Source: a virus. Taken from it: DNA of 61,521 nucleotides. Below the pieces are notes generated by a model, which worked only from the letters and a program-made list of their open reading frames with translations, had not been told where the DNA came from and did no database searches. This document shows, in pieces, positions 38,388 to 58,850 of the stretch (its first letter is position 1; each line of letters begins with the position of its first letter). The translations under genes were made by a program, and so were the position numbers. Where the stretch lies: IMG/VR virus record IMGVR_UViG_3300042465_003931, positions 1 through 61,521 of that record, one strand, 5' to 3'.

Positions 38388-39244
38388 TCAACGGTTTCCT
38401 GAATGTATTGACTGCACCACTTTGCGACGCCGCAGAAGTTGCCAACGCAACGGCGCGGTTCTCCGGGTCTTGTTTCGACGTACCCCTTCTCTTTTTCTGC
38501 AAGCTCCTGCGCTTCATCAAGGCTCTTGAAGACGCGGATAGCGGTCTTCCTGCCCTCTCTGCGAACAGCGTAAGTGGTTTCGGACGCCCACCGCTCTTCG
38601 TCTGAGCACAGGTTGATGTCTTGGCCGAGCGCTGCTGCAAACTTGCTCTCTTCGTGAGCCTCCATCCGCTGGCGGATGTAGATCTCGGCATCCGAGTTGC
38701 TCCACATCGGGATGTTGACCATGACGATGGGGGCCTGGGGGTAGCCCTCCCGGTAGTCATGCCGGTTGTAGTCTCTGATCAATGCGCAGATCTTCAGGCC
38801 CACAACCTTCTGGTTCTTCTGCGTTTCAACGAGCCACTTGTAGATGTTCAGTTGTGTTGTCCAGTCGGACTTGTCGTTCATCACCGACCACGCAGAGGTG
38901 AACTTGTAGTCGATGATGACCACCCCGCCCTCGGTCTGCTGCTGGACATCGATGGCACCAGAGATGGTGATACCGTCGATCTGGGCGAAGATCCGCTCCT
39001 CTTGGATGTGGTCATCAAGCTGACCGCGCTCCATCACGACATGGAGGGCAGACCCCATAAGGGACCACAGCATCTCGCTGACATCCCTCTCCATTTCTTC
39101 TTTGTAGCGCTCCTGAAGCCTGCGAACGCGCACGGGAGACATCAGCTCCGTCACGCTGTACTCGGCCTTGCCCTTGCTGTAGTATTCCCGCGACGCCAGG
39201 GCGACTAGCGTCTCAGGCACCCCGAACTTGTTGGTGATCTTCAT
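38384..39244 (-). CDS. PD-(D/E)XK exonuclease (RecB/Cas4-like)
   Basis: 286 residues from ATG 39244 preceded by GGAGG. Catalytic residues: H68 (SALH), D99 in GAIDVQ, and D112-x-K114 in IDYKFTS, with the trailing QLNIYKWLV. The C-terminal CVGNFCGVAKWC cluster resembles the Fe-S cysteines of RecB/AddB/Cas4 enzymes. It resects DNA ends for the annealing protein encoded next. Confidence 0.85.
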   Translation of the reverse strand: MKITNKFGVPETLVALASREYYSKGKAEYSVTELMSPVRVRRLQERYKEEMERDVSEMLWSLMGSALHVVMERGQLDDHIQEERIFAQIDGITISGAIDVQQQTEGGVVIIDYKFTSAWSVMNDKSDWTTQLNIYKWLVETQKNQKVVGLKICALIRDYNRHDYREGYPQAPIVMVNIPMWSNSDAEIYIRQRMEAHEESKFAAALGQDINLCSDEERWASETTYAVRREGRKTAIRVFKSLDEAQELAEKEKGYVETRPGEPRRCVGNFCGVAKWCSQYIQETVE

Positions 39245-39254
39245 GGAACCTCCG

Positions 39255-39704
39255 ATGTGTCCGCATGATAGCGCAAGCGAACAGCCCTTGCAATCCCTAT
39301 CGCTGATAATTTTTGGTGAGCCCGCATCGAAGGCCAACAGTCGGCGGGTGGTCAGGATTGGCGGCACCTCTAGGCTGATCAAGAGCCAGAAGGCCTTGAC
39401 CTACGCGGAGTTGTTTAGACAGCAGGCGGGGGAGGACAGGTGCATGGACGGTGACGTGCGGGTCACCCTACACATCTGGTACGCGTCCAGAAGGCCGGAC
39501 CTTGATGAGTCACTTATCTTGGATCTGCTCCAGGGAGTTGCCTACCGCAACGACAGGCAGGTCAAAGAGAAGCACATCTACTGGCATCTCGATCCATCGA
39601 ACCCGCGAACCAACATCGTTGTGGAGCAGATGGAAAAAAAAGACCCCGAACACGGTCGGGGTCGAAAGCGGCTCACGGGCCGCACAGGAGGGAGACGCAC
39701 CTGA
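39255..39704 (+). CDS. rusA: RusA-like Holliday junction resolvase
   Basis: 149 residues from ATG 39255; ATG 39243 is an alternative, and no strong ribosome site marks either. The fold signature is IIFGEPASKANSRRVVR then RPDLDESLILDLLQGVAYRN DRQVKEK, giving the acidic residues of RusA that bind Mg2+ at junctions. It is divergent from the exonuclease operon and overlaps its promoter. A leftward terminator lies in its 3' end. Confidence 0.8.
   Translation: MCPHDSASEQPLQSLSLIIFGEPASKANSRRVVRIGGTSRLIKSQKALTYAELFRQQAGEDRCMDGDVRVTLHIWYASRRPDLDESLILDLLQGVAYRNDRQVKEKHIYWHLDPSNPRTNIVVEQMEKKDPEHGRGRKRLTGRTGGRRT
39265..39293 (-). promoter_or_regulatory. Leftward promoter for the recombination operon
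   Basis: Minus strand TTGCAA (39293-39288), 17-bp spacer, TATCAT (39270-39265). Transcription would begin about 39258, giving a very short leader with the GGAGG of the exonuclease gene. The TGCGCTA around the -10 also occurs at the same place in the 35945-35972 promoter, so the two may share a regulator. It lies inside the 5' end of the divergent rusA. Confidence 0.6.
39634..39663 (-). terminator. Leftward intrinsic terminator inside the end of rusA
   Basis: On the minus strand GACCCCGA and TCGGGGTC form an 8-bp stem around 6 bases, followed by eight Ts. It would stop transcripts coming from the non-coding region to the right (39700-40440) from entering rusA antisense. No leftward gene lies directly upstream, hinting at leftward transcription from that region. 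Confidence 0.75.
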
Positions 39705-39889: not shown

Positions 39890-39947
39890 TGTCGCGTTAG
39901 CGACAAAGCCCTATAGAGCTTGACAACCGCTGTGGATGTGGTACAGT
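39890..39947 (+). promoter_or_regulatory. Rightward promoter for leader RNA and replication operon
   Basis: TTGACA (39920-39925), 16-bp spacer, TACAGT (39942-39947). A 6-bp-arm palindrome TGTCGC GTTA GCGACA (39890-39905) sits 14 bp upstream of the -35 and may be an operator. The start of transcription would be near 39954, just before the first structured element. Confidence 0.7.
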
Positions 39948-39960
39948 GGATCTTGTTGGC

Positions 39961-40346
39961 GTGAGAACCGACGTTCGGAGCCCTTGCTCATCGACCCGCC
40001 CCCCAGCCCCCGGGGGGTTCTCACCGGGTCGAGTAGCAAGGGCTTTGTCGTTTCTGCACCAACCGTACTCCGCACGACAGCAAGGGGTCTAGAGTGCCTG
40101 CGCGGAAGAAAAGCTCTACACGGTAAGCCGTGGGCTTGATGATGACGATGTGTGTGACAAGTCTTGCTGTGGCTCCCTTAAGTGCAGCCGTCTGGCTACA
40201 GCAAGGCTCTGCTAAATGGGTGCGACTCCCTGTGTCACTCCGAGTCGCCGTCATCATCAAGCCTATGGCCGGGGGCAGTTCCCGTAGAACCCGTGCGGCT
40301 AGCCGTAACCTCAAGCCGGGGGGTGTCTGAAAAGGCACATGAGGTT
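39961..40346 (+). ncRNA. Candidate structured RNA / long 5' leader with pseudoknots
   Basis: Perfect complementary segments fill this gene-free stretch. Element 1: GTGAGAACC (39961) with 40016-40024; AGCCCTTGCT (39979) with 40035-40044; TCGACCCG (39991) with 40025-40032; the first crosses the other two, a pseudoknot. Then TAGAG (40090)/CTCTA (40114) directly followed by CACGG/CCGTG (40119-40132), directly followed by a 15-bp stem 40133-40147/40249-40263. Inside it are CTTGCTGT (40163)/40198-40205, GCGACTC (40222)/40242-40248 and a crossing pair GTGACA (40154)/40233-40238. A last pair is AACCTCA (40307)/40340-40346. It may be a regulatory leader or a separate RNA. No protein-like frame fits. 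Confidence 0.65.
39962..39976. promoter_or_regulatory. LexA-type operator (copy 2)
   Basis: TGAGAACCGACGTTC contains GAAC-N4-GTTC and matches 12 of 15 bases of the operator before the LexA-like gene at 50855. It lies about 10 bp after the predicted transcription start, where a bound repressor would block elongation. It overlaps the first strand of the RNA pseudoknot. Confidence 0.5.
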
Positions 40347-40449
40347 CCCGAAAGGGGGTGATCCTCTCCGTACTTCACTGTTTACAGTGGGGTAGGGGGA
40401 GCCTTTGGGTGATCTCCGCCAACTGGTGGGGTGTTTTGTGGAGATGCAC

Positions 40450-40665
40450 ATGGAAGAAGGAAAAGATGAAGCAATGGAGTTTCTCCGGAAACTACCGGAG
40501 GACATTGCGTCAGGCCGTCGCAGGTCTGTTCTTGTGTCTGTGATGGATGGTCATTTGGTCCTCAGTCAGTTTGGCGTGCCTGATGAAGAGGCGCTGTCCA
40601 TGCTGATGCAGGCCATTCAGGTCTACCAGCTGGTCATGCTGGTAGACGAGACAGAGGTTCATTGA
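40450..40665 (+). CDS. Hypothetical 71-residue protein
   Basis: ATG 40450 chosen with GGAG 6 bp upstream; ATG 40444 is possible. It contains MEFLRKLPEDIASGRRRSVL and LVLSQFGVPDEEALSMLMQA, acidic helices around a small strand. It is the first gene of the rightward replication operon. Not recognised. Confidence 0.6.
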   Translation: MEEGKDEAMEFLRKLPEDIASGRRRSVLVSVMDGHLVLSQFGVPDEEALSMLMQAIQVYQLVMLVDETEVH

Positions 40666-42482: not shown

Positions 42483-42743
42483 ATGCCATCGTCACCAGGG
42501 TACAAGAGGAACTACGAGCAAGAGTACAAAACGCAAGTAGGTAGGGAAGAGCATCCGAGCAGGATGGAAAGACAAAAAGCCCGCCGAAAGATGGATGCAA
42601 ACGGCGTTGACCGGGCGGGCAAGGATGTCTCTCATAAGAAAGCTCTATCCAAGGGCGGCAAGAACAATGACGGGGTGAAGCTCCAATCCCCATCCAAGAA
42701 CAGGAGCTTCCCGAGAACCAAGTCTGGAGCGATGCGTGATTGA
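42483..42743 (+). CDS. HNH-related small protein
   Basis: 86 residues. VDRAGKDVSHKKALSKGGKN NDGVKLQSPSKNRSFPR follows the D-x-H-x-x-x-L-S-x-G-G-x-N-x8-N-R outline of HNH folds, but the first Asp-His pair is VSH, so catalysis is doubtful. Similar proteins are found in phages near replication genes. AAGGAG precedes the ATG. Confidence 0.6.
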   Translation: MPSSPGYKRNYEQEYKTQVGREEHPSRMERQKARRKMDANGVDRAGKDVSHKKALSKGGKNNDGVKLQSPSKNRSFPRTKSGAMRD

Positions 42744-44412
42744 GGCACTGGTTGAAGGCCTTGGCTTCAACGATCACGCGAGAGTGGCGTGTCCTTTTTG
42801 CACGCCCGACCGGAAGAAAAGTAGATCAAAGGACATGAGCCTGACCCGCTCTGACGGCGCGGTGCTGTACTTTTGCCACCACTGTGGTGAAAGGGGCTCA
42901 GTTCAAAACAGGAGAAAGATCTTGTCAGTGGTTCCAAGCCCGAAGGTTTTGCAGAACAAGTTGGATCTGACGCACCGCCAATGGCTACAGGGTCGAGGCA
43001 TTTCAGAGGCCACAGCAGAGAAGGCAAAGCTGTTCTCGGCCCGCAAGTGGTTCGACAAGTTGAACCGGGAGGAGGCTTGTGTTGGCTTTCCCTACTTCAG
43101 GGACGGATCGTTGGTCGCGGTCAAGTACCGCGCCATCTCTGAGAAGGCATTTACACAAGACTCCGGTGGGGCGCATGACTTCTTTGGCGCGGATCTCGTA
43201 GATCCATCGAAGCCTCTCGTCATCGTTGAGGGGGAGGTGGACGCTCTGTCTCTGATGGAGGCAGGAGTTGAGAATGCGGTGTCAGTACCGGGCGGTGCGC
43301 CGGTCAAGGTGGCAGACGGCAAGGTACGCCCAAGCGAAGACAAGAAGTTCGCGTTCGTCTGGAATGCAAACGCCCTGCTTGAGAAGGTTCCCTACGTCGT
43401 TCTCGCCACGGATCAAGACGGACCCGGTCAGGCTTTGGCCGAAGAATTGGCAAGACGGATAGGCAAAGAGAAGTGCCGCCTTGCAAAGTTCTCCGGAAAA
43501 GATCTGAACGACGTACTCAATGACCCCTCACGGGGATCGCAAGCGGTACGGGACATCATCGATGCGGCCCAGCCTTACCCGATCAGCGGTCTTTCGGACG
43601 CGTCGACATACAGGGACAGGCTGGACGATCTGTTCTCCAAGGGAACGGGCAAGGGATCAAGCACCGGCTACCAATCGCTCGACGGCATTTACACAGTCGC
43701 GCCGGGGCAGTTGACCGTGGTCACTGGGTATCCATCCAGTGGCAAATCAAACTTTGTAGATCAGTTGATGGTCAACCTTGCCAAAGGGGAAGACTGGAAG
43801 TTTGCCATTTGTAGTTTCGAGAACCAGCCGGAGATCCACATCAGCAGACTGATGGAGATTTACACGCGCAAAAGATTCTTCGACGGGCGGGACAGGATGA
43901 CAGACCAAGAGAAGGACGACGCCTTTGAATGGGTCCAAGAGCACTTTCTGTTCATTGATTCTCAAGGAGAAGAGCCAAGCACACTCGACTCCATCCTTGA
44001 TCGAGCGCGGGCGGCTGTCAAACGAATGGGCGTAAGAGGTCTGGTGATCGACCCTTACAACTACATTGACCTCAACAAGGGAGAAGACTCCGAAACAAAC
44101 GCAATCAGCAACATGCTGACCCGGGTGCAGAAATTCTGCAAAGCGCACGATGTACACGTCTGGTTCGTTGCTCACCCATCCAAGATGTCCCGGTCAGGAA
44201 ATGACCAACCGAGACCGGACGGAATGAGCATCAGCGGATCAATGGCATGGTGGGCAAAGACAGATTGCGGATTGACAGTCCACAGAGCGGAGAAGTGTGT
44301 GGAAATAGCGGTGTGGAAGTGCCGCTACAGATGGGTTGGAACGCAGGGCGAAACGTCCCTGCTCTACAACAAAGTGGCAGGCACCTACTCTGAAGACCTT
44401 GACAAATTTTGA
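42736..44412 (+). CDS. Bifunctional primase-helicase (T7 gp4-like)
   Basis: 558 residues from a GTG at 42736 overlapping the preceding gene by 8 bp. Zinc-binding C19, C22, C47, C50 (ACPFC, FCHHC); TOPRIM motif PLVIVEGEVDALSLMEAG near 160-178 and ATDQDGPGQ; Walker A GYPSSGKS at 331-338; later RGLVIDPYNYIDL (Walker B) and the SGSMAWWAKTD motif. It primes and unwinds DNA at the fork as a hexamer. It is the main replication enzyme; no DNA polymerase gene is seen in the window. Confidence 0.9.
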   Translation: MIEALVEGLGFNDHARVACPFCTPDRKKSRSKDMSLTRSDGAVLYFCHHCGERGSVQNRRKILSVVPSPKVLQNKLDLTHRQWLQGRGISEATAEKAKLFSARKWFDKLNREEACVGFPYFRDGSLVAVKYRAISEKAFTQDSGGAHDFFGADLVDPSKPLVIVEGEVDALSLMEAGVENAVSVPGGAPVKVADGKVRPSEDKKFAFVWNANALLEKVPYVVLATDQDGPGQALAEELARRIGKEKCRLAKFSGKDLNDVLNDPSRGSQAVRDIIDAAQPYPISGLSDASTYRDRLDDLFSKGTGKGSSTGYQSLDGIYTVAPGQLTVVTGYPSSGKSNFVDQLMVNLAKGEDWKFAICSFENQPEIHISRLMEIYTRKRFFDGRDRMTDQEKDDAFEWVQEHFLFIDSQGEEPSTLDSILDRARAAVKRMGVRGLVIDPYNYIDLNKGEDSETNAISNMLTRVQKFCKAHDVHVWFVAHPSKMSRSGNDQPRPDGMSISGSMAWWAKTDCGLTVHRAEKCVEIAVWKCRYRWVGTQGETSLLYNKVAGTYSEDLDKF

Positions 44413-45552: not shown

Positions 45553-45627
45553 TCAAATCACGCCGGTCAGCATCAGCGCCGCGATCACGGCGCAGAGGAT
45601 CAGCAACAGTCGGTCGTCGTCGTTCAT
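45553..45627 (-). CDS. 24-residue membrane micropeptide
   Basis: Translates to MNDDDRLLLILCAVIAALML plus TGVI: acidic N-terminus and one hydrophobic helix. The ATG overlaps the stop of the CobT-like gene (ATGA), and AAGGGGG is about 5 bp upstream. Its layout is the same as the micropeptide at 31312-31377. Confidence 0.5.
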   Translation of the reverse strand: MNDDDRLLLILCAVIAALMLTGVI

Positions 45628-47432
45628 CGTGCCCCCTTCATCTGCCCGAATGCCACGCGGCCCAGGTCCTCCAGTCGGTCGACCTGCACGGCTGAATCCC
45701 CGTAGGTCTCGCTGACGTTGTGCCCAATCCCCACGCCGATCACGCGGATCCCAAGCCCCCGGGCGGCGTCTAGTTGGCGGGCGGTGGTCCATACGTTGCC
45801 GTCCCCGTCGCTGATGCTGATCAGGATCTTGCGCTGCGCGGGGTGCGCCATCAGTGCTTCGGTCGCGTACCGTGCGGCGGCGTAGTCGTTCGTGTCACCC
45901 TGGCCATGCAGGCGGCGCAGGTCGGGCAGCGCCTTGCGCCACGGTTGGCCCCATTGCTTGAGGACCGTCGAGTCGGTGCCGAACGTGAGCAACAGGGACT
46001 CGCCTCGGGCCTGGGCGATAGCGTCGAGCAGGGCGGTGCATGTGGCCACTGCCAACCCAATTCGGGAAGTCGCCACGCGGTCGCGAATCATCTCCAGTCG
46101 GTGCGTGTCGCGCACATTGCAGCCGCCCGTGGGGAACATCGATCCGCTAACGTCCAGCATGATTGCCACTGCTGAGTCAACTCCATCCGTCGAATGACGG
46201 CGGGCGAACACCTCGCGCCTGCCTGTCGCCACGCTGGCGAGTGCGGGCCGGTGCAGGGTGCCGGACCGATAGCCGCCCTCGCGCCACTCGGTCGCGCTGT
46301 TCTCCAGCAGGCGGCGGACCTCCAGGCGGAGGCGGGCCGGGACCGCTGCCTCTGTGGGCCAGATGTCCATCGGCGCGCAAGAGGGCAGGCGGGCCCGCAG
46401 CACGGATTCCCGGGTGTAGGTTCCGCCCGGCGCGCTCTCCTCGGGCCTGGGTTGAGAGGGCTCGACCTCCCGTGCTTGCTGGTGCCCGCTGGGGGCCCTG
46501 GCGGGGCCTGTGGGCTCGTCCTGTGGTTCACCCTTGCCCTGGCCTTCGGCTGCGCCTTGCGCGTCTCCTGCGCCTTCCTGGCCGTCTTCCTGGCCGTCGC
46601 CCTGGCCTGCGCTCTGGCCTTGCTGGCCGTCCTGGCCTTGTCCTTTGCCCTGGCCTTGCGCGTCTCCTGCGCCGTCCTGTCCGTCCTGTCCGTCCTGGCC
46701 GTCGTCCTGGCCTTGCTGGCCGTCCTGGTCCTGGTCGCCTTGTCCCTGGTTCTGTTGGTTCTGTTGGTTCTGCTGGTTCTGTTGGTTCTGCTGGTTCTGT
46801 TGGTTCTGCTGGGGCGGCTGTTGCAGTTGATCGAACACCCAGCGGGCAAGCTCTAGGGTGTCGGCGGTCGAGTGGCAGGCGTCGAGCCGTGACGCGGCGG
46901 TGCGCCAGATCGGCAGCAACTCGGCGGGCGTGGGCACGGTGTGCCCGTAGCCGCGCAGGTAGACCGCCAGACTGAAGGGGTACTGTGCCGGGTCGGACCA
47001 GTCATTCACCGCCTCGCGGGCCTGGGTGACCATGGTACCGAGTAGCTCCCTCAGCAGGTTGCCAATGTTCCCGGTCAGTCCCTCGCGGATGGCGCGTCGC
47101 TCGATCCAGGCGTCCTCGATTGCGTTGTGGAGCGTGTCGACGTAGGGTCGACCGTCGGACCATGTGAACGTGGTGAGCTTTCGGTGCAGTAGCTCGTGCA
47201 CCACATAGCCCGCGTAGTGGTGGATCGTGGCGCGGGTGACGGTGGCGGCGTCGCCGATATCGGACAGGATCATGTCGCCGCTGGAGTTAATCGCGGCGGT
47301 CTGGATTCGGCTCGACCACTGGACCGTGATCGGCTGCAATTCGAGCGCCTTGCACAGTCGATGCGCGAACGCCTCGAGCCCTGCGCGGGCCTCGATGCCG
47401 CGCATGGTGCGGCTCATAAGTAGATCGGTCAC
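45624..47432 (-). CDS. CobT-like VWA-domain protein with HExxH motif
   Basis: 602 residues from GTG 47432 overlapping the ATPase stop. N-terminal metal site HELLH (79-83) with NAIEDAWIE (103-111) as possible third ligand. Residues ~206-340 are a Gln/Asn repeat (QQN) then Gly/Gln/Asp low-complexity linker. The C-terminal VWA domain has MIDAS DVSGSM (427-432) and later SISDGDG. The plan is that of CobT, the cobaltochelatase partner of CobS; phage versions have no proven substrate. It probably works with the ATPase upstream to remodel or metallate a target. Confidence 0.8.
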   Translation of the reverse strand: MTDLLMSRTMRGIEARAGLEAFAHRLCKALELQPITVQWSSRIQTAAINSSGDMILSDIGDAATVTRATIHHYAGYVVHELLHRKLTTFTWSDGRPYVDTLHNAIEDAWIERRAIREGLTGNIGNLLRELLGTMVTQAREAVNDWSDPAQYPFSLAVYLRGYGHTVPTPAELLPIWRTAASRLDACHSTADTLELARWVFDQLQQPPQQNQQNQQNQQNQQNQQNQQNQGQGDQDQDGQQGQDDGQDGQDGQDGAGDAQGQGKGQGQDGQQGQSAGQGDGQEDGQEGAGDAQGAAEGQGKGEPQDEPTGPARAPSGHQQAREVEPSQPRPEESAPGGTYTRESVLRARLPSCAPMDIWPTEAAVPARLRLEVRRLLENSATEWREGGYRSGTLHRPALASVATGRREVFARRHSTDGVDSAVAIMLDVSGSMFPTGGCNVRDTHRLEMIRDRVATSRIGLAVATCTALLDAIAQARGESLLLTFGTDSTVLKQWGQPWRKALPDLRRLHGQGDTNDYAAARYATEALMAHPAQRKILISISDGDGNVWTTARQLDAARGLGIRVIGVGIGHNVSETYGDSAVQVDRLEDLGRVAFGQMKGAR

Positions 47433-58798: not shown

Positions 58799-58850
58799 GC
58801 CAAAACAAACCCCGCACGCCTCTCAACGATGCGCACCAGCGGGGTTCCTC

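What the first reader, a model, noticed from the sequence alone, without database searches (positions are those of the whole stretch)
39961..40346. Undescribed highly structured RNA with two pseudoknots before the replication operon
Nearly 400 bp without a coding-like frame carry at least nine perfect complementary segment pairs of 5-15 bp, several directly abutting, and two sets that cross (9-bp 39961/40016 against 18 bp of 39979-39998/40025-40044; 6-bp 40154/40233 against 7-bp 40222/40242). A good promoter lies just upstream. Alternative pairings are also possible: CAGCAAG recurs at 40078 and 40198 and can pair with CCTTGCTG-like strands, so the RNA could switch. I do not recognise tmRNA, RNase P, 6S or group I intron signatures.
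Basis: partly seen in the sequence, partly recalled or inferred. Interest (0 to 1): 0.8.

Follow-up and report, generated by a model that had tools for sequence, protein, structure and literature searches.

The report
Phage RNA copying its own end
Upstream of this phage's replication genes lies a large, intricately folded RNA unknown to Rfam, found once per genome in many uncultured phages, and a few of its loops always match the DNA just beyond its own end, as if the RNA were built to grip the gene it is copied from.

Summary
The structured RNA is real, larger than reported (window 39920-40414), and absent from Rfam 15, the phage and plasmid records searched, and all prokaryotic genomes searched. 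It has a conserved sigma70 promoter and two modules. D2 (40059-40414) is a ~250-nt core with three pseudoknots: 95% of cells paired, 36 of 45 pairs with two-sided changes, 13 base pairs beyond a tree-simulated null. Unexpected: internal segments Q1 and R1 are identical to, and change in step with, the sequence at the RNA's own 3' end (R1=R2 in 138/152 distinct D2s, 12 variants). An unrelated RNA (extended Rfam Betaproteobacteria-1) occupies the same genomic slots and shows the same rule (50/54). No complementary RNA partner was found, so by elimination the shared partner is probably the template DNA strand. Best mechanism: a leader RNA that re-pairs with its own template behind RNA polymerase, making a local R-loop, perhaps a ColE1-like replication primer. 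The family and structure are well supported; the mechanism is inferred (about 0.33).

The parts
39920..39947 (+). sigma70-type promoter: -35 TTGACA (39920-39925), -10 TACAGT (39942-39947), TG before the -10
   Evidence: promoter-like pairs upstream of D2 in 158 of 189 loci against 19.6 in shuffles; visible in alignments
39955..40053 (+). module D1: hairpin P1 (39955-39972) whose loop 39961-39969 pairs with 40016-40024 inside hairpin P2 (39978-39989/40032-40044); in most relatives P2 ends in a T run (intrinsic terminator), degenerate here (TTTGTCGTTT)
   Evidence: perfect covarying pairing in 32/32 homologues; T run of 5 or more in the last 70 nt before D2 in 124 of 156 loci
40059..40414 (+). 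module D2: conserved core RNA with about 140 nt of inserted sequence in one arm
   Evidence: covariance model R1: 158.5 bits, E 1.3e-55 (the window row is in the model); structure counts
40064..40076 (+). helix S1 (CGU/ACG); its loop (40069-40072) pairs with 40103-40106: pseudoknot 1
   Evidence: helices 1 and 2; AU/GC exchange
40092..40116 (+). pseudoknot 2: 40092-40095 with 40113-40116, crossing hairpin S2
   Evidence: helix 4; GC/CG exchange
40119..40295 (+). helix S3 (40119-40123/40291-40295) enclosing arm S4 and hairpin S5
   Evidence: helix 5
40130..40266 (+). insert in the S4 arm with a long basal stem (40132-40147/40249-40263); multi-arm, cloverleaf-like in 15 loci; absent from most relatives
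40296..40346 (+). pseudoknot 3: S6 (40296-40300/40314-40318) crossing S7 (40308-40312/40341-40345)
   Evidence: helices 8 and 9
40301..40304 (+). Q1 (AGCC), identical to Q2 at 40400-40403
40357..40362 (+). R1 (GGTGAT; with flanks GGGTGATC 40356-40363), identical to R2
40364..40399 (+). hairpin S10; its 3' strand is the nearly invariant G cluster GGGGTAGGGGG
40400..40414 (+). 3' boundary: Q2 (40400-40403), position matching 40346 (40405), R2 (40408-40413; GGGTGATC 40407-40414)
   Evidence: only copy in the window with up to 3 mismatches
40450..40665 (+). first gene downstream (ATG 40450, GGAG 40440-40443), small protein of unknown family

Best explanation
A promoter-driven RNA (D1+D2), one per phage genome, folds into a multi-pseudoknot core that displays short segments (Q1, one linking base, R1) identical to the last about 14 nt of the element. 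When RNA polymerase has copied the G cluster and Q2..R2, these segments re-pair with the template DNA strand behind it and hold a local RNA-DNA hybrid (R-loop) at the boundary between the G cluster and the AT-rich stretch. The likeliest use is RNA-primed start of phage DNA synthesis at that site, a ColE1-RNA-II-like preprimer or origin, with D1 acting as a pseudoknotted attenuator of primer synthesis. SHOWN by comparative sequence: the RNA, its helices and pseudoknots, the promoter, single copy per contig, and identity-coupled segments in two unrelated RNAs. INFERRED: that the shared partner is template DNA. SPECULATIVE: that the hybrid primes replication.
For: Identity covariation: R1=R2 over 6 columns at constant spacing 52 (180-232 TT/AA/GG, 182-234 AA/GG, 181-233 GG/TT), Q1=Q2 (GGTC, GGCC, GGGT, GGCT; AGCC in the window), 164=227 (TT/AA). 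The top scores 0.76, 0.70 and 0.57 exceed every same-base pair in 20 tree-simulated nulls (largest 0.52). A T is inserted in both copies in L034, L066 and L079. Reverse complements of R within 900 nt are rare and scattered. Unrelated D2' shows the same rule: 6-nt match in 50 of 54, same-base pairs at spacing 75. Never more than one copy per contig. GC skew +1.0 at the G cluster, then a GC trough of 0.26 against 0.50 background just past R2, as expected of an R-loop-prone site; ColE1 and mitochondrial CSBII primers also use a guanine-rich stretch and an R-loop (PMC6317783, PMC5043065). No protein family in the scanned flanks (up to about 6 kb) is shared by all carriers, consistent with use of host enzymes.
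Against: No transcript, R-loop or replication start has been measured. Six to eleven matched bases is short for a stable hybrid without a protein. In some phages the element lies behind terL rather than at replication genes. The first ORF begins within about 75 nt of R2 in 120 of 150 loci, which also fits a regulatory leader. GC skew of the window turns near 39-40 kb, but gene direction turns there too. The inserts and D1 have no clear role in a primer model.
Confidence: 0.33

Rival explanations
1. cis-acting transcription-control leader, working like HK022 put RNA: D1/D2 act on RNA polymerase at the head of the operon, and Q1/R1 contact the template or bubble to suppress pausing or to pass terminators.
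For: Promoter, then D1 with an intrinsic terminator in most relatives, then D2, then an ORF start within about 75 nt in 120 of 150 loci; put RNA acts on RNA polymerase without a dedicated protein (PMC9378689).
Against: One copy per contig, whereas HK022 has putL and putR of about 70 nt; the D1 terminator precedes D2, and terminator-like sites right after D2 were almost never found (1 of 151 by a strict scan); put needs no self-copy.
Confidence: 0.22
2. trans-acting noncoding RNA or RNP guide: the split guide is loaded on a protein encoded elsewhere, and the cis copy is its DNA target or processing site.
For: The identity signature is the one used to find bridge-RNA guides that pair with the bottom strand (PMC11208160); dense unpaired conservation; independent of the downstream gene.
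Against: No protein family shared by all carriers in the scanned flanks; the only window match with up to 3 mismatches is its own 3' end.
Confidence: 0.2
3. A regulatory protein (RNA- or DNA-binding) recognises both R copies and coevolves with them.
For: Two copies of a short motif, with purine-rich, Shine-Dalgarno-like R2 in D2' often 8-22 nt before the start codon.
Against: R changes among close relatives in both copies at once, including a shared insertion; Q and the linking base follow the same copy rule; no shared regulator gene nearby.
Confidence: 0.12
4. Template-switch signal: a cDNA or nascent DNA strand copied from Q2..R2 jumps to Q1/R1, as in reverse-transcriptase systems.
For: Requires exactly the observed identity.
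Against: No reverse transcriptase was recognised among the recurrent neighbour families I inspected; the rest of each genome was not scanned.
Confidence: 0.06

Closest known systems
ColE1 RNA II preprimer
   Same: promoter-driven structured noncoding RNA; guanine-rich stretch and persistent hybrid at a defined site (PMC5043065, PMC6317783); from my own knowledge, a G-rich loop pairs with template DNA near the origin, i.e. a repeat of the nascent sequence
   Different: no sequence or structure homology that I know of; split 4+1+6-nt self-copy; phage; priming not shown
Rfam RF02932 Betaproteobacteria-1 (here apparently part of the larger RNA D2')
   Same: replaces D2 in the same genomic slots, also behind D1, also with R1'=R2' at its 3' boundary
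   Different: no homology with D2 (covariance model R1 does not hit it); different fold
IS110 bridge RNA
   Same: RNA segments that covary with DNA by identity (bottom-strand pairing)
   Different: bridge loops pair with both strands and need a DEDD recombinase; here only identity and no shared recombinase found in the scanned flanks
GOLLD / ROOL large phage RNAs
   Same: large ornate RNAs of phages and metagenomes
   Different: no match at curated or relaxed thresholds; different size; no self-copy reported that I know of
HK022 put RNA
   Same: structured RNA at the head of an early operon
   Different: about 70 nt, two stem-loops, two per genome, no pseudoknot core

Membership tests
Any of 4227 Rfam families (incl. 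GOLLD, ROOL, tmRNA, RNase P, 6S, group I intron) | covariance-model score at or above gathering | tested here: not met
   only abiF elsewhere in the window; best relaxed hits in the region are chance, E 3.8 or higher; relatives L101/L171 show no hit to D2 itself
Betaproteobacteria-1 (RF02932) | RF02932 model match | tested here: not met
   window none; hits only L049, L075, L080, which carry D2' instead of D2
ColE1-type RNA-primed origin | host-type promoter and structured transcript over the site | tested here: met
ColE1-type RNA-primed origin | RNA segment matching the nascent sequence at the hybrid site, plus G-rich stretch | tested here: met
ColE1-type RNA-primed origin | persistent RNA-DNA hybrid, RNase H cut, RNA-to-DNA junction | not testable with these tools
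   needs in vitro transcription and nascent-strand mapping
IS110 bridge RNA | guides pairing with top and bottom strand of target and donor | tested here: not met
   only identity pairs (one strand) found
IS110 bridge RNA | adjacent DEDD recombinase | tested here: inconclusive
   no family shared by all carriers in the scanned flanks; whole genomes not scanned
HK022 put antiterminator | about 70-nt two-stem RNA, two per genome | tested here: not met
HK022 put antiterminator | terminator read-through in cis without protein | not testable with these tools
   reporter assay needed

The most novel reading that the evidence does not exclude
Viruses carry interchangeable, unrelated large RNAs that work by one rule not described before as far as I know: the folded RNA carries a split copy of its own 3' end and invades its own template DNA there, giving a programmable, single-site R-loop that serves as an RNA-primed replication origin or polymerase control point.
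Probability: 0.3. Interest if true: 0.92.

Novelty: categorically new. Interest (0 to 1): 0.77.

Why it matters
It adds a widespread viral RNA class seen only in uncultured phages, with a structure supported to the level of individual pseudoknots, and a covariation signature (identity instead of complementarity) that recurs in an unrelated scaffold. If the template-pairing reading is right, it would be a self-targeting R-loop device in phages, testable with one in vitro transcription experiment, and it would give a function to Rfam's orphan Betaproteobacteria-1 RNA.

Tried and rejected
Chance fold: rejected (z -5.9; covariation). Coding region: the recurrent ORF 'family' overlapping D2 is a spurious reading. 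Terminator at the end making D2 a free ncRNA: a strict scan finds almost none, though a few loci (L101, L164, L187) look by eye to have one. Third RNA partner complementary to R: no such covarying columns; reverse complements of R within 900 nt are rare and scattered. Second target elsewhere in the window: none. Cos/pac site: 23 contig ends fall inside the element but at scattered positions, as expected of assembly breaks in conserved sequence. Cellular copies: four chance 18-mer hits only, none with the family; the model over family and class samples of a betaproteobacterium found nothing, so the host stays unknown. tRNA in the inserts: ARAGORN finds none in the inserts of the loci scanned, though arms look tRNA-like. 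D2'' (L005-L016) holds another long intergenic stretch with no Rfam match and no obvious self-copy. Direct BLAST to phage isolates and plasmids: no match.

Full report
WHAT IS THERE. The window is a 61.5-kb IMG/VR virus record. Between a RusA-like resolvase gene (39228-39704) and a run of plus-strand genes that includes a primase-helicase (42736-44412) lie a promoter (TTGACA 39920, TACAGT 39942) and about 460 nt without a recognised gene. The transcript 39953-40440 folds to -231 kcal/mol, z -5.9. Rfam 15 has no family for it, and INPHARED has no similar DNA.

RELATIVES. Searching IMG/VR with the primase-helicase gave 80 loci; nhmmer found a homologue at the same place in more than half of them. 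A scan of 84,980 prokaryotic species genomes found four 18-mer hits, none with the RNA, and a covariance model found none in a family sample of 100 and a class sample of 369 genomes. I therefore take it as a phage RNA; the hosts are unknown.

MODULES. D1 is a hairpin whose loop pairs with a bulge in a second hairpin. That pairing is perfect over 6-10 bp in all 32 aligned members with many different sequences. In most relatives the second hairpin runs into a T tract (5 or more T in 124 of 156 loci), so D1 looks like an intrinsic terminator or attenuator; in the window the tract is poor. D1 is exchangeable: other loci have different structured D1 types, also with promoter and T tract. D2 is the conserved core. 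In some relatives it is replaced by an unrelated RNA, D2', whose short forms match Rfam RF02932 Betaproteobacteria-1, and in the closest primase relatives by another unnamed long intergenic stretch (no Rfam match). D2 and D2' also share a second slot, directly behind terL. In 40 contigs the D2 signature occurs once (33) or not at all (7), never twice.

STRUCTURE. For 157 D2 sequences (effective number 94) I scored column pairs by mutual information and compared them with 20 alignments simulated on the tree. Thirteen Watson-Crick pairs pass E 0.05; they include pairs from all three pseudoknots. On a 29-sequence alignment the 11-helix model has 95.2% of cells paired and 36 of 45 pairs with changes on both sides; shifting the 3' strands by one column drops pairing to 43-47%. 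G-U pairs argue that RNA is the folded molecule. The covariance model built from it scores the window at 158.5 bits over 40059-40414 (the window row is in the model) and does not hit the D2' and D2'' loci tested.

THE SELF-COPY. R1 (columns 178-183) and R2 (230-235) carry the same six bases in 138 of 152 distinct sequences, with 12 variants. Among the 64 loci whose R1 is not the majority form, 57 match, against 10.9 if R2s are dealt among them. The other unequal cases differ by one base or are partly alignment shifts; an extra T appears in both copies in L034, L066 and L079. Q1/Q2 (GGTC mostly; GGCC, GGGT, GGCT, and AGCC in the window) and one base between them (columns 164 and 227) follow the same rule. 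In order, Q1, base 164 and R1 equal the contiguous 3' end Q2-T-N-TG-R2 of the element. Same-base scores for R exceed all same-base pairs in the simulations; Q and 164/227 taken singly do not. D2' behaves alike: 6 identical nt in 50 of 54 sequences, same-base pairs at spacing 75. No column pairs with R as a complement, and reverse complements of R nearby are rare. Two segments that must be identical and have no RNA complement share, by elimination, the complementary strand of the DNA itself, or else a protein.

MECHANISM. Just before R2 lies a nearly invariant G cluster (GC skew +1.0), and just after R2 GC drops to 0.26 against about 0.50 around. G-rich non-template DNA followed by easily opened DNA is where R-loops form; ColE1 and human mitochondrial primers work this way (PMC5043065, PMC6317783). 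I therefore commit to: RNA re-pairing with its template at Q2..R2, probably to prime DNA synthesis, at 0.33. A put-like polymerase-control leader is the main rival, since an ORF begins within about 75 nt of R2 in 120 of 150 loci. A trans guide RNA is next; bridge RNAs show how identity covariation reveals bottom-strand pairing, but they also pair with the top strand (PMC11208160), which is not seen here.

LIMITS. The alignment was made by MAFFT and inserts were removed. The null has only 20 replicates. Many loci were chosen by exact patterns in Q2/S10 or S5, so conservation there is overstated; the R and structural signals lie mostly outside those patterns, and Q2 lies inside one of them. Loci from the primase search do not have this bias. 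The searched paper library lacks most subscription journals, so a prior description cannot be excluded.

Noticed in passing
window 58810-58845 (+): abiF RNA (RF03085, 44.6 bits, above gathering): a possible AbiF-type defence RNA carried by the phage.
   Followed up: no
window 40130-40266; L089, L093, L226, L138, L091 and others: Insert in the S4 arm of D2 in 15 loci: multi-arm, with tRNA-like D-arm (GTGTAGCTCA) and T-arm (GGGTTCGATTCCC) sequences in some; not called as tRNA by ARAGORN in those scanned.
   Followed up: partly
L026, L042, L268, L270 and others: Rfam RF02932 Betaproteobacteria-1 appears to be only part of a larger RNA (D2') with its own 3' hairpin and the same self-copy rule; very common in IMG/VR.
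   Followed up: partly
L005, L006, L010, L012, L016 (about 300-700 nt after the RusA gene): A further long conserved intergenic stretch, probably another structured RNA, in the same slot (D2''), with no Rfam match.
   Followed up: partly
L171 929-1002: int-alpA RNA (RF02996, 35.5 bits, just under gathering) directly 3' of D2, ahead of an O-like replication gene in related loci.
   Followed up: no
L106, L114, L121 upstream of D2; L268, L274 upstream of D2': A different D1 module (GTCTGGAGTGGCATCCAGGCGA...GGGGTTTTTGC), apparently pseudoknotted, precedes both D2 and D2'.
   Followed up: partly
window 45624-47432 (-): 602-aa protein with a Q/G/D-rich repeat region and a CobT/VWA-like C-terminus.
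   Followed up: no
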